Shown here: piece after piece, positions 2,113-42,672 of the stretch
Position numbering within the stretch: position 1 is the first letter of the stretch
How the letters are laid out: every line of letters starts with the position of its first letter
Source: Vibrio syngnathi
GTDB taxonomy: Bacteria; Pseudomonadota; Gammaproteobacteria; Enterobacterales; Vibrionaceae
Length of the DNA: 64,000 bases
Reading direction: 5' to 3'
Assembly (NCBI RefSeq): GCF_002119525.1
Contig: NZ_CP017917.1
Location: 682,001-746,000, forward strand
The notes under the pieces: generated by a model
What the model saw: the letters and a program-made list of their open reading frames with translations, nothing else
Told to the model about the DNA's origin: nothing
Databases searched by the model: none
Program-made: the position numbers and the translations under genes

Positions 2113-2199
2113 GCCCTGGTGGTGGAATTGGTAGACACAAGGGATTTAAAATCCCTCGGCGTTCGCGCTGTGCCGGTTCAAGTCCGGCCCGGGGCACCA
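2113..2199 (+). tRNA. tRNA-Leu (anticodon TAA), first copy
   Basis: 87-nt type II tRNA with encoded CCA. Acceptor GCCCTGG pairs with CCGGGGC. The anticodon loop TTTAAAA sits between AGGGA and TCCCT, giving anticodon TAA at 2147-2149, and the T-arm contains GGTTCAAGTCC. First gene of a five-tRNA transcript. Confidence 0.96.
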
Positions 2200-2283
2200 T
2201 CTATCTTGTTTCTACTTTTTAGTAGAGTGATGAACAAAGAGTGGTTCTCTTTAAACACTTCAATATATTTTTATATTGATAAA

Positions 2284-2357
2284 GGCGCCTTGGCAGAGTG
2301 GCTATGCAGCGGATTGCAAATCCGTGGACCTCGGTTCGACTCCGGGAGGCGCCTCCA
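2284..2357 (+). tRNA. tRNA-Cys (anticodon GCA), first copy
   Basis: 74-nt tRNA with encoded CCA. Acceptor GGCGCCT pairs with AGGCGCC and the loop TTGCAAA gives anticodon GCA at 2316-2318. It follows tRNA-Leu after an 84-base spacer. Confidence 0.96.
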
Positions 2358-2409
2358 TTCTCTTTCTCTCTTTTATGAACAAGAAGAGATAAGCAAGAAG
2401 AATGAAATT

Positions 2410-2485
2410 GCGATACTAGCTCAGTTGGTAGAGCGCAACCTTGCCAAGGTTGAGGTCATCGGTTCGAACCCGATGTATCGCTCCA
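2410..2485 (+). tRNA. tRNA-Gly (anticodon GCC)
   Basis: 76-nt tRNA with encoded CCA. Acceptor GCGATAC pairs with GTATCGC. The anticodon stem CAACC/GGTTG encloses TTGCCAA, giving anticodon GCC at 2443-2445. Confidence 0.95.
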
Positions 2486-2565
2486 AATTTTGTAATGTTG
2501 ATTCATTTTGACATTAAGATGGTGTTTTACTTTTCAGTAATCGGCATCGCAATAAAGAATTGCGT

Positions 2566-2652
2566 GCCCTGGTGGTGGAATTGGTAGACACAAGGGATTT
2601 AAAATCCCTCGACGTTCGCGTTGTGCCGGTTCAAGTCCGGCCCGGGGCACCA
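2566..2652 (+). tRNA. tRNA-Leu (anticodon TAA), second copy
   Basis: 87-nt tRNA nearly identical to the one at 2113; the differences are in the variable arm. It is preceded by a diverged copy of the same leader that precedes the first tRNA-Leu, so this is a duplicated cassette. Confidence 0.96.
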
Positions 2653-2716
2653 TCTATTTGATTGTTACCTTGTTTGGTAATACTCAAAAGAGTTGTTCTC
2701 TTAAAACACTATTGAA

Positions 2717-2790
2717 GGCGCCTTGGCAGAGTGGCTATGCAGCGGATTGCAAATCCGTGGACCTCGGTTCGACTCCGGGAGGCGCCTCCA
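2717..2790 (+). tRNA. tRNA-Cys (anticodon GCA), second copy
   Basis: 74-nt tRNA identical by eye to the one at 2284, with encoded CCA. Last gene of the cluster, immediately followed by a strong terminator. Confidence 0.96.
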
Positions 2791-2870: not shown

Positions 2871-4058
2871 TCAAAAGGTCCAAATCTGATCAGTGAACTG
2901 CACTTTTTCGATACTGGACAGTAGGTTCAAGCCGTCACGAGAAACCACGGTATCATTAAGCTGAAATTTGCCATTCCCCAGATCATGAATTTGGTATTCA
3001 CTTTTAGGACCATGGGTGATAACCGTATTTGTACCTAAATTGCCAGTCACTTTGTTATCAAATCTATTGAGCTCAACATTCGTGTTGTTGCTGCCTGTTA
3101 ACGTTAGCTTCGTTAGATACTGAGAATGATGGGTATAGGACGTTGCCGGGTCATATTTCATTTTAAATGTACCAGTGAATGTATCGGCAATGTATGCATC
3201 GTAAGTCAATGTTGGAGAGAAAATCTGTTCCACTATTGATTGCGCATCGGGATCTTCTGTCGAAAAGTCGTCACGAGTTTTCACTTGGTAGACCCCCCAC
3301 ATTCCTTTGCCGTTGTATGCACCCCAAAGACCGTAGTAGCTATCAATCACTGCCGCAAAGTACTCTTGATCAACGCTGACTTCTTCTTGCCACTCTTCTA
3401 AAATATCACGGGATGGCGTGTAAGCATGGTGTAACGCTTGTCTCTGTATTGCATTAAATTCTTTTTGAAATTCAGGTAATGCGGTGACTGCATCTTCAGG
3501 TGAGTTGAAAACGCCGATTCCATAGTCGTGGACTAGGTGAAGTATTTCTTCATAAGCGGCGTCACGATGCTCTCTATAATTTTGTTGGACATACCATTCA
3601 CCACCTTCAACTTGAATCTCTTCTTCGAACAAGGGCTGCCCGGCTAATTCATCATTGTATCGTGGATCATCGTAATAATTCATAAGCTTTAGTATTGCGC
3701 CATTGTTGGCCATCGCGTTTGCAATCTCGCGTTTTGAGTCAGTGCTCCCATACTTAGTGCCATCAACAGGGGTTAGATAGTGGTTGAGAACATTGACGGC
3801 TTTGACTATTTGATAATTGCTCAGGCGATCCATAATCAAAATATGGATAGATTTGCCATTCGGGGCATTGACCGCTACATATCGGTTGTAGCCTGCTTGA
3901 GAGTATTCAGCGAATTGAGAGGGAACGGCTTCAATCGTGACCCCATGTACAACTGACGGTGCTGCGTTTGCCTGATTGAATAGCGATTTATTTTGATTTG
4001 AACCGCATCCAATGAGAAAGATAGCTGTCGCTAAGGTAGCTAAAGATAGAGTTTTCAT
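2871..4058 (-). CDS. Lipoprotein of unknown function
   Basis: 395 residues. The start has a lipoprotein signal peptide with lipobox LIGC (Cys18), so the mature protein is probably anchored in the outer membrane. I do not recognise the central family. Around residues 165-180 the stretch EEILHLVHDYGIG resembles the region around a zinc-protease helix but does not have a plain HExxH. The last ~50 residues (ending LLSSIEKVQFTDQIWTF) resemble the beta segment found next to RTX calcium-binding repeats in secreted proteins, though no RTX nonapeptides are present. It stands alone, convergent with the tRNA cluster. Confidence 0.75.
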   Translation of the reverse strand: MKTLSLATLATAIFLIGCGSNQNKSLFNQANAAPSVVHGVTIEAVPSQFAEYSQAGYNRYVAVNAPNGKSIHILIMDRLSNYQIVKAVNVLNHYLTPVDGTKYGSTDSKREIANAMANNGAILKLMNYYDDPRYNDELAGQPLFEEEIQVEGGEWYVQQNYREHRDAAYEEILHLVHDYGIGVFNSPEDAVTALPEFQKEFNAIQRQALHHAYTPSRDILEEWQEEVSVDQEYFAAVIDSYYGLWGAYNGKGMWGVYQVKTRDDFSTEDPDAQSIVEQIFSPTLTYDAYIADTFTGTFKMKYDPATSYTHHSQYLTKLTLTGSNNTNVELNRFDNKVTGNLGTNTVITHGPKSEYQIHDLGNGKFQLNDTVVSRDGLNLLSSIEKVQFTDQIWTF

Positions 4059-4153: not shown

Positions 4154-6199
4154 TTACAAAGCATTTTGTCCCCATAATTCTTTGCTGTTAGTTGTTTCTA
4201 GAAACACTAGGTAGGCCTGAAGAGTCAACGATGGTTGGTTTTCGAAATTTGCGTTTAGTTGTTTATAAACGAAATTAGCATCGAACTTAGCCAGTTGAGA
4301 GTGAAGCAATGGATCATTAAGAATCAAGCCGATTAACTTGTTACTAGAATCAGTCGCTACTTGTGTCAGTCGATAGAGAGCGGCGTGCTGAATGCCGATA
4401 TACGAATGCTTGACCAATTCTAATAATTGTTGCTCGTCATCGATGTATTTTATTAAGCCGATACTTAAAGAGAGGTTGGGTGATGATGTCAGTGACAAAT
4501 GGTTCAGTTGTATCCAATCATCACCAAGCCAGCCGAGGATGTCGTCGATGTTCTCGGATTTTTCATCTAGTAAGAGTTCTAACGCTAGCTGGCTAAAGCG
4601 TGATGTTTGTGCATCGGAAAAGCTTATATTGTGTCTACATAAGGCAAGAATTAAGGCGTGAAATGCTACTTTGGTTAGATGACTTGTTTTGTCTTCCGAG
4701 CAAAGGCTGCGCAGCCATGCTTTGTTTGAGCAAAGCTCTAGAGCGATCACTTGATTTTCGAGGTCCTCTATTTTTGCTGATCTCTTCGACCGCTTTTTTA
4801 CCGAACCAGAGCTAGATGTGGCGGTAGATATAGCGGCAGAAGTAGCCGGTGAGTGGGCTTGTTTTAATGCATCAAGCGTTGATGTAATAAGTGCTGGTTG
4901 AGGATTAGCATCATTGATTACCGCGCTAATCATTTCATTTGTAGGTGCGGTGCTCGTTGTTGTTCTACTTTTTTCTGAAGAATCCGTAACTATGGTATCC
5001 GATGTCCTTAAAGTGAGTTTTTTCAAATAGCTTTGATGGCTAGCTTTAGGATTTTTCGAAAGGTGTTCAATCAGCAGTCGCTTGATAGCGTTGCTGCAAG
5101 TGACCCGCTGAATTTGTTGACGAATAAAGGCTACGCTGAGTTGTTCGCAAGTTTCAGTCAATAGGCTGCTTAGGCAGTCGAGTTGTTCTGACTCTTCTAA
5201 CTGTGAAAACACTTGATAGAAATGGGGTATAAAACGGGCAAGTTGAAGCTGTTTGTGCTGACTTTCCAAACTGCAAATCAGCAGAAGAAGCGTTGTGGTT
5301 GAATAAGCAACATTGGGTTTATCTTGAAGTTGGTCAATGACATGCAGTTTATCTTTGTTACTCAGTAGCCCTGTGAGTGAGTAGAGCTGCATACCAGATA
5401 GCAGTAACTCAAAATTAAGGTGCTTTAAATCTACTAGGTAATTCCATTTAGCTAATTGATGTACGGAACTCTTTCTTATTGATGAATCTGAATGAGACAG
5501 GCCGTTTAAAAATACCTGCAGATATTCACGACAATCCATTTCAGATAGACGCTGAAATGCGACTTTTTGGCAGCTAATATCAGGGTGTTGTGTGGCTTTG
5601 TACAAGACTATTTTGTCTTGAGTGTTTCTCAAAAAAATCCGACTATCAGCGGTGCTTTTGAGTACGTTGTTTTCATTTAGCAGAGTCGGGGAGTGGCGTG
5701 AAAGTAAAGCAATGAGTTTGCCTTTTAGATCTGGCTCGGGGTCACTCTGAAGCCGATGCAGTAAACGCTGAGACTGTTCGTGATCTAGTTCGTGCTTGTG
5801 ATTATCTAAAATCCGCGCAGCTATCAAGCTGATGTCATCTCCATCATTCCAACCACCGTCCCAGTAGTCGTTCTCGTCGCATACCGCTTCTAATAATATC
5901 GGAACAGCGAGTAGAGAGTGTCGGTTGTTCTCAATAGCCATTAACGATGCCAACTTAATTTCGCTGTCGTCCCAGTATTGATAGCAGTTTAGGATAGGCT
6001 CAATAGGCGCTTCGTTAGCTAAAGCGAGACATTCAAGGCTAGTAAGAACAAGGTCAGGGTTATGGGACTCTAAGTTCTCAATAATCAGGTGTTTAGTGTC
6101 TTGAAAGCCGCTTAATATTTGTGCTGCTAAAACCTGTTCGGAGAGGTTTCCAGTCAAGTAGATGTGTTTAACCTTGTGAAGTAATTTATCTAGAGACAT
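4154..6199 (-). CDS. HEAT-repeat-like protein of unknown function
   Basis: 681 residues without signal peptide or membrane segment, so probably cytoplasmic. The N-terminal ~390 residues are built of repeated helical pairs with the Leu/Ala spacing of HEAT/Armadillo repeats (for example VLTSLECLALANEAPIEPIL, ASLMAIENNRHSLLAVPIL). A low-complexity Ser/Thr/Ala linker lies near residues 400-475 with a basic patch KKRSKRSAK, and more helical repeats follow. Such scaffolds bind other proteins; the partner is unknown. It is divergent from the Idr-like operon with a 135-base shared intergenic region, so a role in assembling or regulating that enzyme is possible but is only inferred from position. Confidence 0.65.
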   Translation of the reverse strand: MSLDKLLHKVKHIYLTGNLSEQVLAAQILSGFQDTKHLIIENLESHNPDLVLTSLECLALANEAPIEPILNCYQYWDDSEIKLASLMAIENNRHSLLAVPILLEAVCDENDYWDGGWNDGDDISLIAARILDNHKHELDHEQSQRLLHRLQSDPEPDLKGKLIALLSRHSPTLLNENNVLKSTADSRIFLRNTQDKIVLYKATQHPDISCQKVAFQRLSEMDCREYLQVFLNGLSHSDSSIRKSSVHQLAKWNYLVDLKHLNFELLLSGMQLYSLTGLLSNKDKLHVIDQLQDKPNVAYSTTTLLLLICSLESQHKQLQLARFIPHFYQVFSQLEESEQLDCLSSLLTETCEQLSVAFIRQQIQRVTCSNAIKRLLIEHLSKNPKASHQSYLKKLTLRTSDTIVTDSSEKSRTTTSTAPTNEMISAVINDANPQPALITSTLDALKQAHSPATSAAISTATSSSGSVKKRSKRSAKIEDLENQVIALELCSNKAWLRSLCSEDKTSHLTKVAFHALILALCRHNISFSDAQTSRFSQLALELLLDEKSENIDDILGWLGDDWIQLNHLSLTSSPNLSLSIGLIKYIDDEQQLLELVKHSYIGIQHAALYRLTQVATDSSNKLIGLILNDPLLHSQLAKFDANFVYKQLNANFENQPSLTLQAYLVFLETTNSKELWGQNAL

Positions 6200-6258: not shown

Positions 6259-6272
6259 ATGATCCTAATCAT
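6259..6272 (+). promoter_or_regulatory. FNR-like site upstream of the Idr-like operon
   Basis: The palindrome ATGAT-CCTA-ATCAT matches the FNR consensus TTGAT-N4-ATCAA except at the two outer symmetric bases. Its centre is 69.5 bases before the ATG at 6335. A TAATAA sequence at 6293-6298 is correctly placed as a -10 if the site is at -41.5, so anaerobic activation is plausible. A Fur site is an alternative reading of this AT-rich palindrome. Confidence 0.5.
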
Positions 6273-6334
6273 ATCTTTAATGTTTCATGTGTTAATAATA
6301 GGGGTAGATGATAGTAACCTCCGAAGGAATACCG

Positions 6335-7408
6335 ATGAGCATCGCACTAAAAAGCTTGGTAGGAGTGTGTTCTCTTTTTTCTGCAACTCTATACGCCGCT
6401 TTGCCTCCTATAAATATAGATACGGCGAAGGCTGAACTCGGTAAACGTCTGTTTTTTGATACGCGCTTGTCCGGGGATGACTCGATTTCGTGTTCCAGTT
6501 GCCACATTCCGGCGAATGGCTTCTCTTATCCTGAACCGTTAAGCCCGGCGTACACAGGGAGTGATGGGTTTCGTAATGCACCCACACTTATTAACACAGC
6601 CTATAAAGAGGTGTGGTTTCACGATGGTCGGATTGGCACCAACCTAAACGATGTGGTGCGGGAAAATATCACTGAAGACTGGCTGATGAATATGGACATG
6701 CGTTTGATGCAAGAACGCCTCAAACAAGACCCTATATACGTCGAGATGTTTAAAGAGGCTAATCTAGGGGAACCTTCAAATGGCGGTGTGCGCAAAGCCC
6801 TGCCTGAATATCTAAAAACACTGACTTCGAAGAACGTCCCTTTTGACAAGGGTGAGCTTAGCGACTTAGCCATCCAGGGAGAAAAGCTGTTCACAGGCAA
6901 AGCGGGGTGCAGCCAATGCCATAGCGGCTCTCTATTTACGGATGGGAAGGCACACAATACCGGAGTGCCAGAAAATCATGAGATATTTTTAGACCCAATG
7001 CGGCATCAATCTTTTCTTGCCTACAACATGTTTATGGGTGTGCAAGATTACTTAACGTTAAAGCGTGATGTTGGTGCGCATGTTCAAACTCATAAAGCGG
7101 ATGGTAGCGATCGCGGTAAATTTGTTACGCCAACGCTGCGAGAGCTGACTCAAACTGCGCCGTATATGCACAATGGCATGCTGGCCACGCTTGAAGATGT
7201 GGTTGAGTTTTATAATCAAGGCGGTGGCGAGGACTCAAATAAAGACTCTCGACTCACCACGCTTTCCTTAACGGACGATGAAAAAAAGGCACTGGTGGCC
7301 TTTTTGGAGTCGTTATCTGGAGACGTTCTCACGGGTGAAAAGTACGAATGGTTGGATTATGACTTCGACTACGAATACACGGAGGATTGGTCAAATGTTC
7401 GTAACTAA
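6335..7408 (+). CDS. Di-haem cytochrome c peroxidase-like protein (IdrP-type), first
   Basis: 357 residues from the ATG at 6335, chosen because AAGGA lies 6 bases upstream and it gives a clean Sec signal peptide ending near AALPP. It is a periplasmic di-haem protein of the MauG/bacterial cytochrome c peroxidase family with haem sites CSSCH (53-57) and CSQCH (192-196). The family reduces hydrogen peroxide. In iodate-reducing bacteria, two such proteins (IdrP1, IdrP2) accompany the molybdoenzyme and are thought to remove reactive products of iodate reduction. It is first in the operon, and the next gene starts inside its 3' end. Which of P1 or P2 it corresponds to cannot be told from order alone. 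Confidence 0.85.
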   Translation: MSIALKSLVGVCSLFSATLYAALPPINIDTAKAELGKRLFFDTRLSGDDSISCSSCHIPANGFSYPEPLSPAYTGSDGFRNAPTLINTAYKEVWFHDGRIGTNLNDVVRENITEDWLMNMDMRLMQERLKQDPIYVEMFKEANLGEPSNGGVRKALPEYLKTLTSKNVPFDKGELSDLAIQGEKLFTGKAGCSQCHSGSLFTDGKAHNTGVPENHEIFLDPMRHQSFLAYNMFMGVQDYLTLKRDVGAHVQTHKADGSDRGKFVTPTLRELTQTAPYMHNGMLATLEDVVEFYNQGGGEDSNKDSRLTTLSLTDDEKKALVAFLESLSGDVLTGEKYEWLDYDFDYEYTEDWSNVRN

Positions 7409-8561
7409 GCGCTCTGTATTAAAGATGGCACTCTTTATTCTAATTGGGATAACGGGGCTTCCTAATGTTGTTTATGCAAAGTTACAGCTTGAGCCTCTAG
7501 GGGAGGTACCTGTACCTGCGGATAATAAACAAACGCCTGAAAAAATAGAGTTGGGAAAAATCTTATTTTATGACGGTCGACTCAGCGGTGATACGACGAG
7601 CCCTTGTGCTGGTTGCCATATTCAATCTCAGGGCTGGGATTTTCCTGATGACCTTTCTATGGGGTACCCGGGAACGGTGCATTGGCGTAATAGCCAAACG
7701 ATCATTAACGCAGCTTACTACGATAAATTATTCTGGGCGGGCAGCGCTATGTCATTGGAAGCGCAAGCCAAAGATGCAGCGAAAGGTGCGGTCGCGGGGA
7801 ATGGTGAAGATGACATCATGGAAGCTCGTTTAGCATTAGTGCCAGAGTATGTTGAACGTTTTAAGCAAGTGTTTGGTGATGATACACCGAAAATACATAA
7901 CGCTTGGCGTGCTATAGCCGCCTTTGAACGTACGATGATTCAACGTGACACACCAATAGATAACTATTTACTCGGTGACAAAACCGCTTTGTCCGAGTCC
8001 CAACTGAAGGGCAAAGCACTGTTTGAAGGTAAAGCGAATTGCATTGCTTGTCACAACGGGGCTTTGGTATCTGACCAAAAATTCTACAACATTGGCGTAC
8101 CGCCAAGCCCTTGGTGGAATGATGATGGATTAGCACAGATAACGTTCCGATTTGAGCTTTATTCTAAAGGTGTCACCGAAGAGATGTACCGCACTACAAA
8201 GGCCGATCCCGGTGCTTACTTTCGTGCCAAACGCAAAGAGATGTTAGGTAAGTTCCGCACACCGAGCTTACGTTATACGAAGTACACAGCACCATATATG
8301 CACAATGGCACCATTCCTACTTTAGAAGCGGTGATCGACTTCTACGATCGAGGTGGTGTCGCAGATGACGGGCGAACGACTGGGTTTCCTCAGACCAAAT
8401 CTACTTTGATTCAACCTCTAGGTTTAACCGAGCAAGATAAAAAGAACTTACTGAGTTTTGTTGAAGCATTTTCTGGTGAACGGATTTTTATTGAAGAGCC
8501 GACCATTCCAGAATACCAAACGCTATTTACCCAAGAAGAACTTGCTGGAGCAGAAAAATGA
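7395..8561 (+). CDS. Di-haem cytochrome c peroxidase-like protein (IdrP-type), second
   Basis: 388 residues from ATG 7395, which has GGAGG 9 bases upstream and yields a signal peptide (hydrophobic residues 9-27, cleavage near VYAKL). The frame is open further upstream but that part overlaps the previous gene. Haem-binding motifs are CAGCH (71-75) and CIACH (216-220). It is a paralogue of the preceding protein: both share the RLSGD...CxxCH segment and a PYMHNG motif near the C-terminal third, typical of the peroxidase family. It overlaps the previous gene by 14 bases and the Rieske gene by 4, so translation is coupled. Proposed role: periplasmic peroxide or reactive-iodine detoxification partner of the Idr-like reductase. 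Confidence 0.85.
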   Translation: MFVTKRSVLKMALFILIGITGLPNVVYAKLQLEPLGEVPVPADNKQTPEKIELGKILFYDGRLSGDTTSPCAGCHIQSQGWDFPDDLSMGYPGTVHWRNSQTIINAAYYDKLFWAGSAMSLEAQAKDAAKGAVAGNGEDDIMEARLALVPEYVERFKQVFGDDTPKIHNAWRAIAAFERTMIQRDTPIDNYLLGDKTALSESQLKGKALFEGKANCIACHNGALVSDQKFYNIGVPPSPWWNDDGLAQITFRFELYSKGVTEEMYRTTKADPGAYFRAKRKEMLGKFRTPSLRYTKYTAPYMHNGTIPTLEAVIDFYDRGGVADDGRTTGFPQTKSTLIQPLGLTEQDKKNLLSFVEAFSGERIFIEEPTIPEYQTLFTQEELAGAEK

Positions 8562-9142
8562 TCGCCAACTCAGAGCGAAATTCGAGTAAACGACACAACA
8601 AATGCATGATGTCACGACGTGATTTTTTACTCTATTCCGGCGCGGCTACTGCCGTATCTATGGTTCCTCTTACCTTATTTGCAGGGATGGATTCTGAAAC
8701 TCAGGTTGAAGGCCGTATTGTTGGTTACCCGCGTAAGAAAATCGCAAAGTTAAGTCAACTCAGTAACCACACTCCGGTTCACTTTCAATATCCAGATGAG
8801 GGGAAAAACTCCATTGCGATGCTGGTTAAATCCGACATTGAATGTGGCGGTGGGATAGGGTTACAGCGCGATATTGTGGCGTACTCGATGACGTGTACTC
8901 ATCAAGGTGGACCTTTAACTGGAGCTTATAAAGCAAAAGGAGAGCATCGCATTGTCGGGCAGTGTCCATTCCACCTGTCTACATTTGATTTGCGTCGCCA
9001 TGGCATTATGGTGTCTGGTCAAGCCTTTGAAAGCTTACCTCAAGTACTGCTCGAGCTCGAAGGTGACGATATCTATGCGGTTGGCGTCATGGGATTGATC
9101 TTTGGTCGCGTGGAAAACCTGATTGATGTGGAGGGAAGTTAG
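8558..9142 (+). CDS. idrB: Rieske [2Fe-2S] subunit, AioB/IdrB family, Tat-exported
   Basis: 194 residues. A twin-arginine signal (SRRDFL, residues 19-24, then a hydrophobic stretch) directs folded export; the large subunit has no signal of its own and presumably travels with it. Rieske ligands are visible as C113-T-H115 and C136-PF-H139. The extra cysteines that form the usual Rieske disulfide are absent (CTHQGG and CPFH), as in some arsenite oxidase small subunits, which would affect redox potential. It passes electrons between the molybdenum subunit and periplasmic carriers. ATGA overlap with the upstream peroxidase gene, and the large subunit follows directly at 9143. Automatic annotation may call it arsenite oxidase small subunit; the two peroxidase neighbours favour IdrB. 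Confidence 0.75.
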   Translation: MIANSERNSSKRHNKCMMSRRDFLLYSGAATAVSMVPLTLFAGMDSETQVEGRIVGYPRKKIAKLSQLSNHTPVHFQYPDEGKNSIAMLVKSDIECGGGIGLQRDIVAYSMTCTHQGGPLTGAYKAKGEHRIVGQCPFHLSTFDLRRHGIMVSGQAFESLPQVLLELEGDDIYAVGVMGLIFGRVENLIDVEGS

Positions 9143-11905
9143 ATGACTCAACTTTCTTTAGCCGATAAATCGGCTTTAAACGATAAATCTGCCTTAAACG
9201 AACAGCCGGCTGTAAACAGCCAGTATCTGCAACCGACCAACACATTACTGCCACCTGCTAGCGCGGAAGTCATCACTACAGCGTGTGACTATTGTATTGT
9301 TGCGTGTGGTTATAAGGTTTATCGCTGGCCTGTGAATAGCCCTTCAGGTGGGCCAGCTGCAAGTGAAAATGCGTTTGGTGTCAATTTCCCGGCTCATGCT
9401 CTGCAAGCTTGGGTTTCGCCACAGCAACATAATATTGTTTCTCATAATGGCAAACCACACCATGTGGTTGTAGTGGCAGACAAAGACATACAGGTCGTCA
9501 ATAAAGGCGGTGATTCTTCGGTTCGTGGTGGACTGCTCGCAAGAAAGCTTTATAACCCAGAAACACCAACCAAAGATAGATTGAAGCAACCACTCGTTCG
9601 AATTAACGGTCAGTTACAACCTGTAGAATGGGATTTTGCGTTGGATATAGCAGCCCAAGTCGGCCGTCATGTGATTGATACGCACGGTTCAAACAGTTAC
9701 TGCGTAAAAACCTATTCCTATCAGTATATTGAAAACACCTATGCGATAACAAAGTATGCATTGCGTCATGTCAATACCGCGAATTTTTCGTTTCATGATA
9801 CGCCGTCAGATGTGACTGCAACCCCAGGGTTTCGAGATGCGGGTTTTGATAATTTTGCCCCAAGTTATGATGATTGGGGCGCGGCAGATACTTTGATGAT
9901 CTGCGGAACGGATCCGTATGAGACCAAAACCATCATCTTTACACAGTTTATTATGCCTGCGGTTCATCGTGGGATGAAAACCGTGATTTTGAATCCTCGT
10001 GAAACCGCAGGAATAGCGTGGCTTAAAGCTCAAGGTGGATTACACCTCGATATTAATCCCGGCAGCGATAATCTTGTGATTGGCGCAATTACGCGGGTGA
10101 TCTTAGAGCAAGGCTGGCAAGACAATGAGTGGATTGAAAACTGGGTCAATAATAAATGGGAATCGAGCTCAGGTTTTGGTCAGGGTACTCGTAATACGCC
10201 ATGGCAATGGAGAACCACTTGGGGCAAATTCCAAACGAATGGCTTTGATGATTATAAGCAATGGAATTTGGAGCAGAAAGAGTACGCACCTGAGTATGCC
10301 GCATCGATCGCGGGTATTGATGTGGAGAAGATCCACAAAGCCGCTGAGATGTTGGCAATGCCAGTCAACGGTCAACGAGTTAAAGCCTCAATTGGTATCG
10401 AGAAGGGCTTTTATTGGTCGAATAATACCGGCAATACCAACGCCATTGCCTCTCTTGCAACGATAATCGGTACTGGTGGCCGAGAAGGGCGTGTGATTGG
10501 TCGATTTGGTGGGCATCAACGTGGTGGACTAGCCGGTGGCAAACTACCAAGGAATAAGTCACCTGAAAAAGTAGCAGGTAGGCGCAGGCGCTCAATAGAC
10601 ACCGATAGATATCTCTATTCCGGGCATACCCGTATGGCCCATGTCATTGGTACAACATGGATTCAAGCTATGTGTAGCAGCTATGGGTTGAAAGAGAAAT
10701 TTACTGACTTAACGACACGTAATCCTCACCAAGCTACGCGACGTGATAAACAGCACATTATAGATACACTCAAAAAGCGTGCAGATTCCGGTGGAATGGT
10801 TGTCATCAATCAAGATATTTATTTACGCGATCCTATTGGTAAACAATTCGCTGATATCATCTTTCCGGCCGCGACTTGGGGGGAAGAGGATTTCATGCGC
10901 GCTAATGGTGAGCGTCGTCTACGTCTTTACCAAAAGTTCGCTGATGCGCCGGGTCAGGCTAAGCCGGACTGGTGGATTGTTGCTCAAATGGCTTCGCGAA
11001 TGGGGTACGACGGGTTTGATTGGCAAAACTCAAATGACGTAGCTGAAGAGTCATCACGATTTAGCCGTGGTAGCCGTAAAGATTTCAATATGATTAAAGT
11101 CGCAGCACATGCTGAAGGTAAAACGCTTCATCAAAAGCTCGCTGAATTTGGTACTGAAGGGATCCAAGGGCCTGTTTTTTATAACTATGATACCAAAAAG
11201 CTGATTGGCACTAAGCGCCTACATGACACTGAAATGAGTTGGGATGATCTGGTCGATAAAGGGCTGCAAGATGGCCCTCAAGGCGCCAATATTATGCGCA
11301 AACAGCTCACTCAATTTAATAGTCAGACGGGGAAGGTCAATCTTCAAAAACATCCTTGGGATCTGTTTAGTGATTTTCATCGTTGGCTTACCCCAAAAAA
11401 GGACGAGTTATGGTTTTCGAATGGTCGTATTAACGAAATTTGGCAGTCAGGGTTTGATGATACCGAGCGCAGGCCTTACATCACTCATCGCTGGCCTGAA
11501 AACTGGATTGAAGTTCACCCAGAAGATGCGGAAAAGCGGGGCATAGAAGCCGGAGATGAAGTGCTTGTGTACTCGGAGCGGGTGGCCAATTTTAAAGATA
11601 CGATTCTGGGTGTCGAGTCGGACGATTTTCAGTTTAGTAACCTAATGAAAAATGGTCACATTCAACTGGATTACGCGGAGATTAAAGCCGTTGCGATTGT
11701 CACCTCAGCCACGAAAAAAGGTGTGTTGTATTGCAATATGATGGACATGAAGAACCCAGCGAATGCTTTAACAACAAGGGTAGTTGACCAAATCAGTGGT
11801 AACTACAACTACAAAATGGGCGTCGCCAAAATAAAGAAAATTGGTGAATCAAAATATAAGCGTGAGTTTGAAGGGTTCTCCTTTGCACCACGTAACATTG
11901 TGTAA
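9143..11905 (+). CDS. idrA: Molybdopterin oxidoreductase large subunit, AioA/IdrA family (probable iodate reductase)
   Basis: 920 residues, DMSO-reductase superfamily. The N-terminal iron-sulfur motif C48-x2-C51-x3-C55 followed by GYKVYRWPV is the hallmark of the arsenite-oxidase-like branch ([3Fe-4S] plus bis-MGD molybdenum). No signal peptide, consistent with co-export with the Tat-tagged Rieske subunit. Downstream, R454-FGG-H458 matches the RxGGH segment of AioA, but the segment SDVTATPGF seems to have Thr where AioA carries a substrate-binding His. Combined with two adjacent di-haem peroxidases, this fits dissimilatory iodate reductase IdrA better than arsenite oxidase. The N-terminus has a small degenerate repeat (KSALNDKSALNE). 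A CopD-like gene follows after 9 bases. Substrate assignment is inference. Confidence 0.75.
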   Translation: MTQLSLADKSALNDKSALNEQPAVNSQYLQPTNTLLPPASAEVITTACDYCIVACGYKVYRWPVNSPSGGPAASENAFGVNFPAHALQAWVSPQQHNIVSHNGKPHHVVVVADKDIQVVNKGGDSSVRGGLLARKLYNPETPTKDRLKQPLVRINGQLQPVEWDFALDIAAQVGRHVIDTHGSNSYCVKTYSYQYIENTYAITKYALRHVNTANFSFHDTPSDVTATPGFRDAGFDNFAPSYDDWGAADTLMICGTDPYETKTIIFTQFIMPAVHRGMKTVILNPRETAGIAWLKAQGGLHLDINPGSDNLVIGAITRVILEQGWQDNEWIENWVNNKWESSSGFGQGTRNTPWQWRTTWGKFQTNGFDDYKQWNLEQKEYAPEYAASIAGIDVEKIHKAAEMLAMPVNGQRVKASIGIEKGFYWSNNTGNTNAIASLATIIGTGGREGRVIGRFGGHQRGGLAGGKLPRNKSPEKVAGRRRRSIDTDRYLYSGHTRMAHVIGTTWIQAMCSSYGLKEKFTDLTTRNPHQATRRDKQHIIDTLKKRADSGGMVVINQDIYLRDPIGKQFADIIFPAATWGEEDFMRANGERRLRLYQKFADAPGQAKPDWWIVAQMASRMGYDGFDWQNSNDVAEESSRFSRGSRKDFNMIKVAAHAEGKTLHQKLAEFGTEGIQGPVFYNYDTKKLIGTKRLHDTEMSWDDLVDKGLQDGPQGANIMRKQLTQFNSQTGKVNLQKHPWDLFSDFHRWLTPKKDELWFSNGRINEIWQSGFDDTERRPYITHRWPENWIEVHPEDAEKRGIEAGDEVLVYSERVANFKDTILGVESDDFQFSNLMKNGHIQLDYAEIKAVAIVTSATKKGVLYCNMMDMKNPANALTTRVVDQISGNYNYKMGVAKIKKIGESKYKREFEGFSFAPRNIV

Positions 11906-11914
11906 GGGAAGTTT

Positions 11915-12358
11915 ATGTTTGGCGTATTATTGGTTTTGCATGTATTGGCTGCCACCATTTGGACGGGAGGGCACATTATTCTCAGCGTCGTTATCCTTCC
12001 TAAAGTCTTGAAACACCGTTCTCCAGAAATGTTATTGGAATTCGAGCAAGGGTACGAAAAAGTGGGAATGCCTGCTTTGGTGATTCAAGTGGTGACCGGG
12101 TTGATGCTCGCTTATCATATGTTGCCGGACGTTAGCTTATGGTTTGATATGTCGATTCCATTGGCTCATGGCATTGCTGCTAAGTTGACGTTGCTGTCTC
12201 TGACGGTATTGCTAGCCCTAGACGCACGCTTTCGTGTGATTCCAAATCTATCGAAGGACAACTTGGTTGATATGGCACTGCACATTGTTCCTGTGACTAT
12301 TATTTCAATTTTGTTTGTGGTTGTCGGAGTTTCATTCAGAACGGGGTGGCTAGTTTGA
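11915..12358 (+). CDS. CopD-like four-helix membrane protein
   Basis: 147 residues with four hydrophobic segments (about 1-24, 50-70, 80-105, 120-145). The start MFGVLLVLHVLAATIWTGGH carries the HxxAATxWxGGH pattern of CopD-family inner-membrane proteins, whose histidines may bind copper or haem. It starts 9 bases after the large-subunit stop with GGGA as ribosome site, so it is the last gene of the Idr-like operon. It could link the periplasmic enzyme to the membrane quinone pool or handle copper for the cupredoxin encoded opposite; neither is shown by sequence. Confidence 0.75.
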   Translation: MFGVLLVLHVLAATIWTGGHIILSVVILPKVLKHRSPEMLLEFEQGYEKVGMPALVIQVVTGLMLAYHMLPDVSLWFDMSIPLAHGIAAKLTLLSLTVLLALDARFRVIPNLSKDNLVDMALHIVPVTIISILFVVVGVSFRTGWLV

Positions 12359-12524: not shown

Positions 12525-12989
12525 TTATTGAATTTTTTGCTCTGCTTGATCGAGCAAGCCTTGCATCTTTTTCTGAGCTCTGCGACTTACACGTTTTTTG
12601 GCCGCATTGCGAGCTTCCTCTAAGTTAACACTGGGATCACCGACAACCACAAGTGCCACCATTCCGTGTCGGTGGTGCACTTTACATTTGATTCCGTACA
12701 CACCTGGCTTATCAAAAGTGACTTCCTGAGCGTTTGAACCGGATATCATAAGAGGCTTTGCGCCATCAGGAAGCATCCCTTGAATGCTATGGGCAGTATG
12801 AGAGCCAACAGTCCCTTTAAAAAGCACCTTATCCCCAGGTTCGATTTCTACGTAATCAGGAATGAATTGATACATCTTGTCGATGTTTTCAGAATTCATG
12901 TCCATCACTTGTTTGATGACTTTTGTTTCGGCAAACGCAGGAGCTGCAATAATAGATAGGATTAGTAAAAGTACGCGCATCGTATTCAC
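12525..12989 (-). CDS. Pseudoazurin-like blue copper protein
   Basis: 154 residues with a signal peptide (1-20, cleavage after AFA), so periplasmic. Type-1 copper ligands are His67 (in TAHSIQG), Cys102, His105 and Met110 in KCKVHHRHGM, with the same spacing as pseudoazurin. A charged helical C-terminal extension (about 120-154) is longer than in classical pseudoazurin. It carries single electrons between periplasmic redox enzymes. The gene converges on the Idr-like operon and is 559 bases from nirB. Arsenite-oxidase-family enzymes can exchange electrons with azurin-type proteins, so it is a reasonable redox partner; that link is inferred from position only. Confidence 0.85.
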   Translation of the reverse strand: MNTMRVLLLILSIIAAPAFAETKVIKQVMDMNSENIDKMYQFIPDYVEIEPGDKVLFKGTVGSHTAHSIQGMLPDGAKPLMISGSNAQEVTFDKPGVYGIKCKVHHRHGMVALVVVGDPSVNLEEARNAAKKRVSRRAQKKMQGLLDQAEQKIQ

Positions 12990-40530: not shown

Positions 40531-40550
40531 ATGTTCCAACATTCCAAACG
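40531..40550. other. Junction of the tandem repeat
   Basis: Left of 40541 is unique intergenic sequence; from 40541 (ATTCCAAACG) the sequence is that of position 10228 onward. No insertion sequence, target-site duplication or long homology is visible at the join; only ATTCC-type microhomology of a few bases could exist. Confidence 0.85.
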
Positions 40551-42219
40551 AATGGCTTTGATGATTATAAGCAATGGAATTTGGAGCAGAAAGAGTACGC
40601 ACCTGAGTATGCCGCATCGATCGCGGGTATTGATGTGGAGAAGATCCACAAAGCCGCTGAGATGTTGGCAATGCCAGTCAACGGTCAACGAGTTAAAGCC
40701 TCAATTGGTATCGAGAAGGGCTTTTATTGGTCGAATAATACCGGCAATACCAACGCCATTGCCTCTCTTGCAACGATAATCGGTACTGGTGGCCGAGAAG
40801 GGCGTGTGATTGGTCGATTTGGTGGGCATCAACGTGGTGGACTAGCCGGTGGCAAACTACCAAGGAATAAGTCACCTGAAAAAGTAGCAGGTAGGCGCAG
40901 GCGCTCAATAGACACCGATAGATATCTCTATTCCGGGCATACCCGTATGGCCCATGTCATTGGTACAACATGGATTCAAGCTATGTGTAGCAGCTATGGG
41001 TTGAAAGAGAAATTTACTGACTTAACGACACGTAATCCTCACCAAGCTACGCGACGTGATAAACAGCACATTATAGATACACTCAAAAAGCGTGCAGATT
41101 CCGGTGGAATGGTTGTCATCAATCAAGATATTTATTTACGCGATCCTATTGGTAAACAATTCGCTGATATCATCTTTCCGGCCGCGACTTGGGGGAAGAG
41201 GATTTCATGCGCGCTAATGGTGAGCGTCGTCTACGTCTTTACCAAAAGTTCGCTGATGCGCCGGGTCAGGCTAAGCCGGACTGGTGGATTGTTGCTCAAA
41301 TGGCTTCGCGAATGGGGTACGACGGGTTTGATTGGCAAAACTCAAATGACGTAGCTGAAGAGTCATCACGATTTAGCCGTGGTAGCCGTAAAGATTTCAA
41401 TATGATTAAAGTCGCAGCACATGCTGAAGGTAAAACGCTTCATCAAAAGCTCGCTGAATTTGGTACTGAAGGGATCCAAGGGCCTGTTTTTTATAACTAT
41501 GATACCAAAAAGCTGATTGGCACTAAGCGCCTACATGACACTGAAATGAGTTGGGATGATCTGGTCGATAAAGGGCTGCAAGATGGCCCTCAAGGCGCCA
41601 ATATTATGCGCAAACAGCTCACTCAATTTAATAGTCAGACGGGGAAGGTCAATCTTCAAAAAACATCCTTGGGATCTGTTTAGTGATTTTCATCGTTGGC
41701 TTACCCCAAAAAAGGACGAGTTATGGTTTTCGAATGGTCGTATTAACGAAATTTGGCAGTCAGGGTTTGATGATACCGAGCGCAGGCCTTACATCACTCA
41801 TCGCTGGCCTGAAAACTGGATTGAAGTTCACCCAGAAGATGCGGAAAAGCGGGGCATAGAAGCCGGAGATGAAGTGCTTGTGTACTCGGAGCGGGTGGCC
41901 AATTTTAAAGATACGATTCTGGGTGTCGAGTCGGACGATTTTCAGTTTAGTAACCTAATGAAAAATGGTCACATTCAACTGGATTACGCGGAGATTAAAG
42001 CCGTTGCGATTGTCACCTCAGCCACGAAAAAAGGTGTGTTGTATTGCAATATGATGGACATGAAGAACCCAGCGAATGCTTTAACAACAAGGGTAGTTGA
42101 CCAAATCAGTGGTAACTACAACTACAAAATGGGCGTCGCCAAAAATAAAGAAAATTGGTGAATCAAAATATAAGCGTGAGTTTGAAGGGTTCTCCTTTGC
42201 ACCACGTAACATTGTGTAA
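40541..42219 (+). pseudogene. 3' fragment of the idrA-like molybdopterin gene, second copy
   Basis: Corresponds to codons ~362-920 of the gene at 9143. The first 361 codons, including the [3Fe-4S] motif and the upstream subunit genes, are missing because the repeat starts here. Indels: one G lost near 41191-41195, one A gained near 41660, one A gained near 42141. Cannot encode a working enzyme as written. Confidence 0.92.
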
Positions 42220-42228
42220 GGGAAGTTT

Positions 42229-42672
42229 ATGTTTGGCGTATTATTGGTTTTGCATGTATTGGCTGCCACCATTTGGACGGGAGGGCACATTATTCTCAGC
42301 GTCGTTATCCTTCCTAAAGTCTTGAAACACCGTTCTCCAGAAATGTTATTGGAATTCGAGCAAGGGTACGAAAAAGTGGGAATGCCTGCTTTGGTGATTC
42401 AAGTGGTGACCGGGTTGATGCTCGCTTATCATATGTTGCCGGACGTTAGCTTATGGTTTGATATGTCGATTCCATTGGCTCATGGCATTGCTGCTAAGTT
42501 GACGTTGCTGTCTCTGACGGTATTGCTAGCCCTAGACGCACGCTTTCGTGTGATTCCAAATCTATCGAAGGACAACTTGGTTGATATGGCACTGCACATT
42601 GTTCCTGTGACTATTATTTCAATTTTGTTTGTGGTTGTCGGAGTTTCATTCAGAACGGGGTGGCTAGTTTGA
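42229..42672 (+). CDS. CopD-like membrane protein, second copy
   Basis: Same 147-residue protein as at 11915, intact. Confidence 0.75.
   Translation: MFGVLLVLHVLAATIWTGGHIILSVVILPKVLKHRSPEMLLEFEQGYEKVGMPALVIQVVTGLMLAYHMLPDVSLWFDMSIPLAHGIAAKLTLLSLTVLLALDARFRVIPNLSKDNLVDMALHIVPVTIISILFVVVGVSFRTGWLV

What the first reader, a model, noticed from the sequence alone, without database searches (positions are those of the whole stretch)
6335..12358. Candidate iodate reductase (idr) operon in a Vibrio-like genome
Seen: two adjacent di-haem CxxCH peroxidase-like genes, a Tat-Rieske gene and an AioA-family molybdopterin gene, all overlapping or abutting. Known: the idrABP1P2 locus of dissimilatory iodate reducers has exactly these four components, whereas arsenite oxidase loci normally lack the peroxidase pair. 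Here the order is P-P-B-A plus a CopD-like gene, unlike the usual A-B-P1-P2 order. Iodate reduction matters for marine iodine cycling.
Basis: partly seen in the sequence, partly recalled or inferred. Interest (0 to 1): 0.9.

Follow-up and report, generated by a model that had tools for sequence, protein, structure and literature searches.

The report
Vibrio iodate reductase with helical partner
This stretch of a marine Vibrio chromosome carries the gene set that other bacteria use to turn iodate into iodide, and beside it a gene for a long spiral-shaped protein that follows this enzyme from genome to genome and that the papers searched do not mention.

Summary
The four-gene set is real and is an iodate reductase (idr) operon, not an arsenite oxidase: idrP2, idrP1, idrB, idrA at 6335-11905. 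IdrA falls in a clade apart from AioA with full support.

New here: the divergent gene 4154-6199 encodes a HEAT-repeat protein of a family that tracks this Idr clade. Among 227 Vibrio genomes it was found in exactly the 23 with idrA; among 394 Rhodobacteraceae, in 17 of the 18 with this IdrA type and, at E <= 1e-50, in no other; 25 of 26 further genomes whose locus lacked it carry it. One draft has it without idrA. Its role is inferred: a dedicated maturation factor is my best guess (0.4).

The second, broken idrA copy at 40537-42161 is an assembly artefact. Iodate reduction itself is untested.

The parts
6335..7408 (+). idrP2: di-haem CCP/MauG-like periplasmic protein with Sec-type signal by inspection (ORF opens at 6308)
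   Evidence: PF03150 6.7e-37; CxxCH at residues 62 and 201 of the ORF; third gene before idrA in 95 of 96 complete clade-I loci
7395..8561 (+). idrP1: second di-haem CCP/MauG-like protein (ORF opens at 7278; signal peptide seems to start at 7395)
   Evidence: PF03150 1.9e-40; CxxCH at 110 and 255 of the ORF; 36% identical to idrP2
8558..9142 (+). idrB: Tat-exported Rieske [2Fe-2S] subunit
   Evidence: PF00355, TAT_signal; TIGR02694 115.2 bits; SRRDFLL and CXHX20CX2H
9143..11905 (+). idrA: Mo-bisPGD catalytic subunit with [3Fe-4S] motif and no visible signal peptide
11915..12358 (+). CopD-like small membrane protein, detected only in the window's nearest Vibrio relatives
   Evidence: PF05425 1.4e-07; 9 of 102 distinct clade-I loci
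12525..12989 (-). pseudoazurin-like periplasmic blue-copper protein, possible electron donor to IdrB
   Evidence: PF00127 37.7 bits, above its cut-off; TIGR02375 1.7e-24, below its cut-off; near idr in 33 of 102 distinct clade-I loci
4154..6199 (-). HEAT-repeat protein, 681 aa, divergent from idrP2; member of the Idr-associated HEAT family
   Evidence: PF13646 5.4e-06, 27.0 bits against a cut-off of 27.7; profile match to the larger HEAT cluster P 99.9, E 4.5e-37; co-occurrence with idrA
6260..6271 (.). FNR-like core TGAT-N4-ATCA between the divergent HEAT and idrP2 genes (predicted)
   Evidence: 9 in the window, 4 of them copies in the false duplication; shuffle mean 1.46; core kept in 12 of 14 loci of the window's lineage compared (two of the 14, L026 and L208, are one record)
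40537..42672 (+). false second copy of the idrA 3' part and the CopD-like gene (assembly artefact, not a second operon)

Best explanation
A periplasmic iodate reductase locus of the marine 'clade I' Idr type with a dedicated cytoplasmic partner. SHOWN by sequence: operon idrP2-idrP1-idrB-idrA, IdrA apart from AioA, and a HEAT-repeat protein family that accompanies this Idr clade. INFERRED: under low oxygen an FNR-type regulator acting at 6260-6271 turns on idr and the HEAT gene. IdrA receives its Mo cofactor and [3Fe-4S] cluster in the cytoplasm, helped by the HEAT alpha-solenoid as a system-specific maturation or assembly factor, and leaves with IdrB on the IdrB Tat signal. [quoted passage not shown] HIO disproportionates or is reduced further to iodide, and IdrP1/IdrP2 remove peroxide-type by-products (published model). 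Sub-claims: idr family 0.95; iodate is a physiological substrate 0.75; HEAT functionally tied to Idr 0.9; HEAT role is maturation 0.4.
For: Gene content and motifs. Tree: AioA, clade I and clade II each one side of a branch, SH-aLRT 100; window IdrA 65-98% to clade I, 46-49% to clade II and 29-30% to AioA. P-P-B-A in 95 of 96 complete clade-I loci, in 0 of 6 AioA loci. AioA-invariant Glu in the substrate loop (E203, A. faecalis numbering, recalled) is Ser/Ala in 118 of 118 clade-I sequences, and a nearby AioA-invariant Glu is Arg in 118 of 118. HEAT family: found in 23 of 23 idrA+ and 0 of 204 other Vibrio genomes (limits 1e-15 and 1e-10), with two HEAT genes in the two genomes that have two idr loci; in 17 of 18 clade-I-idrA+ and 0 of 376 other Rhodobacteraceae genomes at E <= 1e-50; in 25 of 26 further genomes. 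FNR-like core conserved in the lineage. No chlorite-dismutase family gene found in the host genome, as in all but two of 145 idr genomes of PMC8692401 (passage). Three marine Alphaproteobacteria with idr reduce iodate (PMC11445184, abstract and passages).
Against: No activity data for any Vibrio were found. Sequences of the characterised IdrAs (SCT, IR-12, DN11, TC-10, R. azorensis) could not be fetched, so the window was not placed directly beside them; neighbouring genes suggest the first four belong to clade II, about 48% identical. HEAT: no direct evidence of contact with IdrAB; it evolves much faster than IdrA (25-29% against 81-88% in four loci), unusual for a tight chaperone; it has a histidine kinase gene nearby in 32 of 65 distinct clade-I loci with HEAT, and in other gammaproteobacteria it heads a cluster with radical-SAM and CydA-like/cytochrome c genes, so it may serve those. 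It is also in 2 of 3 loci outside clade I and II. One genome (G319) has it with no idrA found and one clade-I genome (G1017) has none found. It was not found in 6 clade-II loci or in 4 clade-II-type Rhodobacteraceae genomes, so Idr can do without it.
Confidence: 0.75

Rival explanations
1. It is an arsenite oxidase (AioAB) with two peroxidase genes beside it by chance, as public annotation says.
For: TIGR02693 390.9 bits against a cut-off of 359 and TIGR02694 115 against 96; several relatives are named 'arsenate reductase (azurin)' in databases; Mo-proximal His and Arg-x-Gly-Gly-His are kept.
Against: Separate clade; 29-30% identity to NT-26 and T. thermophilus AioA; two peroxidase genes in 95 of 96 complete clade-I loci but in 0 of 6 AioA loci; AioA substrate-loop Glu lost in 118 of 118; no sensor kinase or regulator of the NT-26 aioSR kind among the window's neighbours.
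Confidence: 0.04
2. The enzyme is an oxyanion reductase of this family whose main natural substrate is something other than iodate (bromate, another halogen or metalloid oxyanion), iodate being incidental.
For: Clade I is only about 48% identical to the clade that probably holds the genetically proven enzymes, and active-site loop residues differ between the clades.
Against: Three marine Alphaproteobacteria with idr reduce iodate; [quoted passage not shown] IdrA of sampled Rhodobacteraceae are mostly clade I (18 of 22 IdrA-type genomes), but whether the tested species are was not shown.
Confidence: 0.15
3. The HEAT protein is part of signal reception for the island, not of enzyme maturation.
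For: HEAT and a sensor kinase gene occur together, often side by side on one strand, in 32 of 65 distinct clade-I loci with HEAT; fast divergence fits a regulatory partner.
Against: 33 of 65 HEAT loci, the window's included, show no such kinase within the stretch looked at (some stretches are short).
Confidence: 0.3
4. The HEAT gene is a linked passenger that spread with the idr island without serving it.
For: Physical linkage alone would give co-occurrence within a genus.
Against: The association holds from Alpha- to Gammaproteobacteria with different placements: divergent upstream, downstream co-directional, or 9-15 kb off and sometimes on another contig; duplicated idr loci carry duplicated HEAT genes.
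Confidence: 0.07
5. The window holds two idr loci, one decayed.
For: 99% identical idrA pieces at 40539-42152 (the three pieces are 99, 91 and 95% identical).
Against: 30.3-kb tandem unit; 42 of 49 differing alignment positions are gaps and all lie within about 10 kb of the junction 40536/40537 in one copy or the other, none between 19.7 and 31.6 kb; both copies match one and the same stretch of the 37 kb compared from the relative G019.
Confidence: 0.03

Closest known systems
idrABP1P2 iodate reductase / iodate reduction island (Pseudomonas sp. SCT, Denitromonas IR-12, Azoarcus DN11, Aromatoleum TC-10)
   Same: Four genes, order P2-P1-B-A, motif CX2CX3CX70S, Tat signal on IdrB, two di-haem peroxidase-like proteins
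   Different: No two-component system, cytochrome c551 or moaA among the neighbours here; pseudoazurin and HEAT gene instead; probably a different IdrA clade (inferred)
idr of marine aerobic Rhodobacteraceae (Roseovarius azorensis and others, PMC11445184)
   Same: Probably the same IdrA clade (18 of 22 IdrA-type genomes in a family sample); pseudoazurin and HEAT neighbours occur in Ruegeria
   Different: HEAT lies downstream of idrA and co-directional there, divergent upstream here; the tested hosts did not grow anaerobically on iodate (section 4), while Vibrio are facultative anaerobes (recalled)
Arsenite oxidase AioBA (NT-26, T. thermophilus HB8)
   Same: Domain make-up, [3Fe-4S] and Rieske motifs, B-A order
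   Different: 29-30% identity, own clade, no peroxidases, different active-site loop
NarJ/TorD/NapD-type redox enzyme maturation proteins (recalled; listings and abstracts only)
   Same: Proposed job of the HEAT protein: cytoplasmic, system-specific partner of a Tat-exported molybdoenzyme
   Different: HEAT/ARM solenoid by profile; relation to these chaperones was not tested; function unproven

Membership tests
Idr iodate reductase | IdrA in a clade separate from AioA | tested here: met
   (support 100)
Idr iodate reductase | Two adjacent di-haem peroxidase-like genes directly upstream of idrBA (order P2-P1-B-A) | tested here: met
Idr iodate reductase | IdrA [3Fe-4S] motif CX2CX3CX70S | tested here: met
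   motif as given in PMC10149662 (passage)
Idr iodate reductase | IdrB Rieske motif and Tat signal | tested here: met
   spacing X20 here against X18 reported for DN11
Idr iodate reductase | IdrA without its own signal peptide, IdrP1/P2 with Sec signals | tested here: met
   by inspection of the N-termini only; SignalP was not run
Idr iodate reductase | Published IdrA HMM score of at least 640 | not testable with these tools
   the profile of PMC8692401 is not available here
Idr iodate reductase | Direct placement beside experimentally proven IdrA sequences | not testable with these tools
   no row named SCT, IR-12, DN11, TC-10 or R. azorensis among those listed (capped lists)
Idr iodate reductase | Iodate reduction, induced by iodate at low oxygen | not testable with these tools
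   needs culture
Iodate reduction island of confirmed respirers | Two-component system, cytochrome c551 and moaA nearby (variable: missing in 2, 5 and 5 of 10 genomes, PMC8801600 section 7) | tested here: not met
   window row
Arsenite oxidase Aio | Large subunit inside the AioA clade | tested here: not met
Arsenite oxidase Aio | AioA substrate-loop Glu (E203, A. faecalis numbering, recalled) | tested here: not met
   Glu in 12 of 12 AioA; Ser or Ala in 118 of 118 clade I
Arsenite oxidase Aio | NCBIfam arsenite_ox_L and arsenite_ox_S above cut-off | tested here: met
   the models do not separate this Idr from Aio
Idr-associated HEAT family (defined here) | Profile relation between the window's HEAT protein and the larger Idr-neighbour HEAT cluster, with shared W...(G)WND/WDDWWDIQL-like and TSTLxA/I motifs | tested here: met
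   the first motif is not kept in every row (L185)

The most novel reading that the evidence does not exclude
Marine clade-I iodate reductase has an obligate fifth component: a fast-evolving cytoplasmic HEAT-repeat solenoid acting as a dedicated maturation or assembly factor for the IdrAB molybdoenzyme, a class of such factor unlike the NarJ, TorD or NapD types. The HEAT family, not idrABP1P2 alone, would then mark the marine type of iodate reducer.
Probability: 0.35. Interest if true: 0.75.

Novelty: new variant of a known kind. Interest (0 to 1): 0.55.

Why it matters
Iodide production from iodate in seawater affects iodine cycling and the ozone budget, and where it happens in surface water is open (PMC11445184). 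Vibrio are easy to grow and live on particles and animals (recalled), so a Vibrio idr locus makes the question testable by gene removal. The HEAT partner gives a concrete handle, not mentioned in the papers searched, on how this enzyme is built or regulated, and a second marker gene for surveys. The case also shows that automatic annotation names these enzymes arsenite oxidases.

Tried and rejected
Gene order as novelty: rejected (PMC10989891).

CopD-like gene as a core part: rejected, detected in only 9 of 102 distinct loci (clusters by BLASTP, so a very divergent counterpart could be missed).

A second idr locus in the window: rejected as an assembly artefact.

Ser222 (at the AioA Ala199 place near Mo, numbering recalled) as a hallmark Mo ligand of IdrA: not clean. 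Ser in 100 and Ala in 18 of 118 clade-I sequences, mixed in clade II; dropped.

Chlorite-dismutase-like step: no match to PF06778 in the host genome.

Placing proven IdrAs directly: the three homologue searches listed 120 proteins each and none of the rows that carry a name named those strains. That SCT, IR-12, DN11 and TC-10 lie in clade II is inferred from Rhodocyclaceae, Rhodocyclales and Planctomycetes names there and from sensor kinase, sigma-54 regulator, cytochrome c and moaA beside clade-II loci L107 and L108.

Structure model of the HEAT protein: not obtained, the tool was off. A PDB sequence profile search gave generic HEAT/ARM solenoids, designed alphaReps first (best 60 of 151 rows seen).

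Weak HEAT hits (41-52 bits in 6 Rhodobacteraceae genomes; at most 78 bits in the other rows) were taken as generic HEAT proteins and not counted. In the window's own lineage the A2 model also gives weak scores (62-120 bits) and misses G127, but there the window's protein as query gives E <= 4.8e-41.

Rows dropped or not sent: one search took one of each set of loci with the same idrA end (126 loci to 117) and set aside loci cut by a contig end (6 clade I, 1 clade II). The one clade-I 'other' (L196) and one clade-II 'other' (L187) arose from ORF picking; one search lists P-P-B-A for both. Of 39 clade-I loci without a HEAT hit, 26 were sent. L196 has a HEAT gene by profile that the neighbour picking left out.
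Full report
WHAT IS THERE. Pfam and motifs identify two di-haem CCP/MauG-like proteins, a Tat-signalled Rieske protein, an AioA-like molybdenum subunit with Rieske_3, Molybdopterin and Molydop_binding domains, and a small CopD-like membrane protein just at the cut-off. Likely starts are 6335 for the first and 7395 for the second peroxidase-like gene, where signal peptides seem to begin (by eye). Downstream on the other strand is a pseudoazurin-like gene, then nirB, a nirD-sized gene, a formate/nitrite-family transporter and a cobA-type methyltransferase gene on +. The host is a Vibrio: the nearest named idrA is V. tasmaniensis 1F-187 at 98%.

IDR, NOT AIO. NCBIfam calls both subunits arsenite oxidase above cut-off, and several relatives are so named. 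A tree of 50 sequences puts the window in a clade of 34 ('clade I': Vibrio, Photobacterium, Moritella, Marinomonas, Ruegeria, Sedimenticola and others), apart from clade II (Azonexus, Sulfurivermis, Halomonas, Caenispirillum, a Planctomycetes MAG and others) and from six AioA, each set with SH-aLRT 100 (quick search, LG+G4, no bootstrap; the tree warns about long branches L109 and L141). Identities to the window: clade I 65-98%, intermediate pair L138/L139 55%, L141 49%, clade II 46-49%, AioA 29-30%. Residues: His218, Arg454 and His458 are shared by all 118 clade-I and 12 AioA sequences, but the AioA-invariant Glu of the substrate loop is Ser/Ala in 118 of 118 and a second AioA-invariant Glu is Arg in 118 of 118 (AioA numbering and roles recalled).

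ORDER AND PRIOR ART. Of 102 distinct clade-I loci, 96 are complete upstream and 95 show P-P-B-A; of 5 complete clade-II loci 4, of 3 intermediate loci 2, of 6 AioA loci 0 (the clade-I and clade-II exceptions are ORF-picking artefacts). PMC10989891 (passages) gives idrP2,P1,B,A for its own genome, SCT and IR-12. PMC8692401 (passages and section 10) already names Vibrio and Moritella as holders with partly vertical descent. So operon and order are known. Idr was found in 23 of 227 Vibrio genomes held; the Vibrio sequences put in the tree fall into two lineages, and two genomes (G187, G210) hold one of each.

THE HEAT PARTNER. The divergent gene 4154-6199 gives a weak HEAT_2 match (27.0 bits, cut-off 27.7). 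Neighbour clustering showed HEAT proteins beside idr in 65 of 102 distinct clade-I loci, in two sequence clusters, related by profile comparison (P 99.9, E 4.5e-37) and sharing a W/GWND...DIQL-like and a TSTLxA motif in most rows. Co-occurrence: in Vibrio the window's protein finds 14 of 227 genomes (limit 1e-15) and a profile of the other cluster 22 (limit 1e-10); their union is exactly the 23 idrA+ genomes, none of 204 others, and the two genomes with two idr loci have two HEAT genes, one at each. In 394 Rhodobacteraceae genomes, clade-I idrA (61-69% identity, four of them partial) is in 18, and the HEAT family at E <= 1e-50 in 17, all idrA+ and directly downstream of idrA; the profile covers the whole protein in 6 and its first two thirds in 11. 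The missing one (G693) has its idrA cut at that side by the contig end. The 4 genomes with clade-II-like IdrA and the 17 AioA genomes of that sample have no hit. Of 39 clade-I loci without a HEAT hit, 26 were followed up: 25 of the 26 genomes have one at E <= 1e-118. Of the 20 such places fetched, 11 lie on a contig of the idr contig's length, about 9-15 kb from idrA, and 9 on another contig. In a class sample of 122 genomes, beside the window's own (weak with this model), two gave strong hits: G290 (idrA+) and G319, a 430-contig draft of 90% completeness in which only unrelated-looking 43-47-bit matches to IdrA were found. Shared descent makes simple probabilities meaningless, but the link holds through several gene arrangements and two classes. 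Not in print as far as searched: 'iodate' with 'HEAT repeat' gives two papers, unrelated by title and abstract; 'HEAT repeat' with 'molybdopterin oxidoreductase' or 'cytochrome c peroxidase' gave nothing relevant in the 12 of 15 papers listed; word searches of the texts of PMC8801600, PMC8692401, PMC11445184, PMC10989891 and PMC10149662 show no HEAT-repeat protein and no chaperone. Their figures, which draw neighbours, are not held and may show it unnamed; supplements were not seen.

MECHANISM. IdrA must be loaded with Mo-bisPGD and exported with IdrB by Tat (as proposed in PMC8692401, passage). A cytoplasmic alpha-solenoid tied to this enzyme clade fits a maturation factor. Against it: fast divergence (25-29% where IdrA is 81-88%) and frequent nearness to a sensor kinase (32 of 65 HEAT loci), which fit signalling; but 33 of 65 show no such kinase in the stretch looked at. 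Other neighbours are exchanged between lineages: pseudoazurin (33 of 102) or a small cytochrome c (13 of 102) as candidate electron carriers, a MobB-MoeA fusion (16 of 102), and one or more genes of a CydA-like/cytochrome c module (20 of 102). The HEAT-idrP2 gap holds a palindromic FNR-type core (TGAT-N4-ATCA) about 60 bp from either start, kept in 12 of 14 loci of the window's lineage compared; the same core begins 79 bp before nirB.

ASSEMBLY. Window 10225-40536 and what follows form a 30.3-kb tandem repeat; the 49 differing alignment positions (42 of them gaps) crowd both sides of the junction 40536/40537, with none in the 12 kb between: most simply an untrimmed contig-end overlap. The broken copies of idrA, nirB, the transporter and cobA in 40.5-49 kb are then artefacts; the operon at 6.3-12.4 kb is intact.

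VERDICT. A true idr operon of a known kind in a genus already noted for it, with a wrong novelty argument from order, but with a strongly associated HEAT-repeat partner next door that the texts searched do not mention.

Noticed in passing
window 10225-40536 and 40537-64000 (on to about 70860 in L111): 30.3-kb tandem duplication, most simply an untrimmed contig overlap; frameshifted gene copies near 40536/40537 are then artefacts.
   Followed up: yes
L229 and L232-L246 (16 of the 20 HEAT regions fetched): In these gammaproteobacteria the Idr-associated HEAT gene heads a conserved cluster: a secreted fn3-like protein, a Usp/PCP_red protein, in most a radical SAM-SPASM protein and an amine-oxidase-type flavoprotein, mostly divergent from a CydA-like protein, a cytochrome c and a cytochrome c/EB_dh protein (Pfam run on L244 only). 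Possibly an alternative electron route to Idr.
   Followed up: partly
G187 and G210 (L114-L117): Two Vibrio genomes each carry two idr loci from different lineages, each with its own type of HEAT gene.
   Followed up: partly
L188 (G572): An IdrA-like protein about 50% identical to both clades, with a B subunit but no peroxidase genes beside it: a possible intermediate between Aio and Idr.
   Followed up: no
window 2113-2790: Cluster of five tRNA genes (Leu, Cys, Gly, Leu, Cys) about 3.5 kb before the operon; a tRNA-Gly was named as a possible island insertion site in PMC8692401.
   Followed up: no
window 8558-11905; NCBIfam TIGR02693/TIGR02694: Both arsenite oxidase models accept these Idr subunits above cut-off, and several relatives are named 'arsenate reductase (azurin)' in databases.
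   Followed up: yes
window 2871-4058 (-): 395-aa protein with a lipoprotein-like N-terminus and no Pfam or NCBIfam match; relatives lie near idr in 8 clade-I loci.
   Followed up: no
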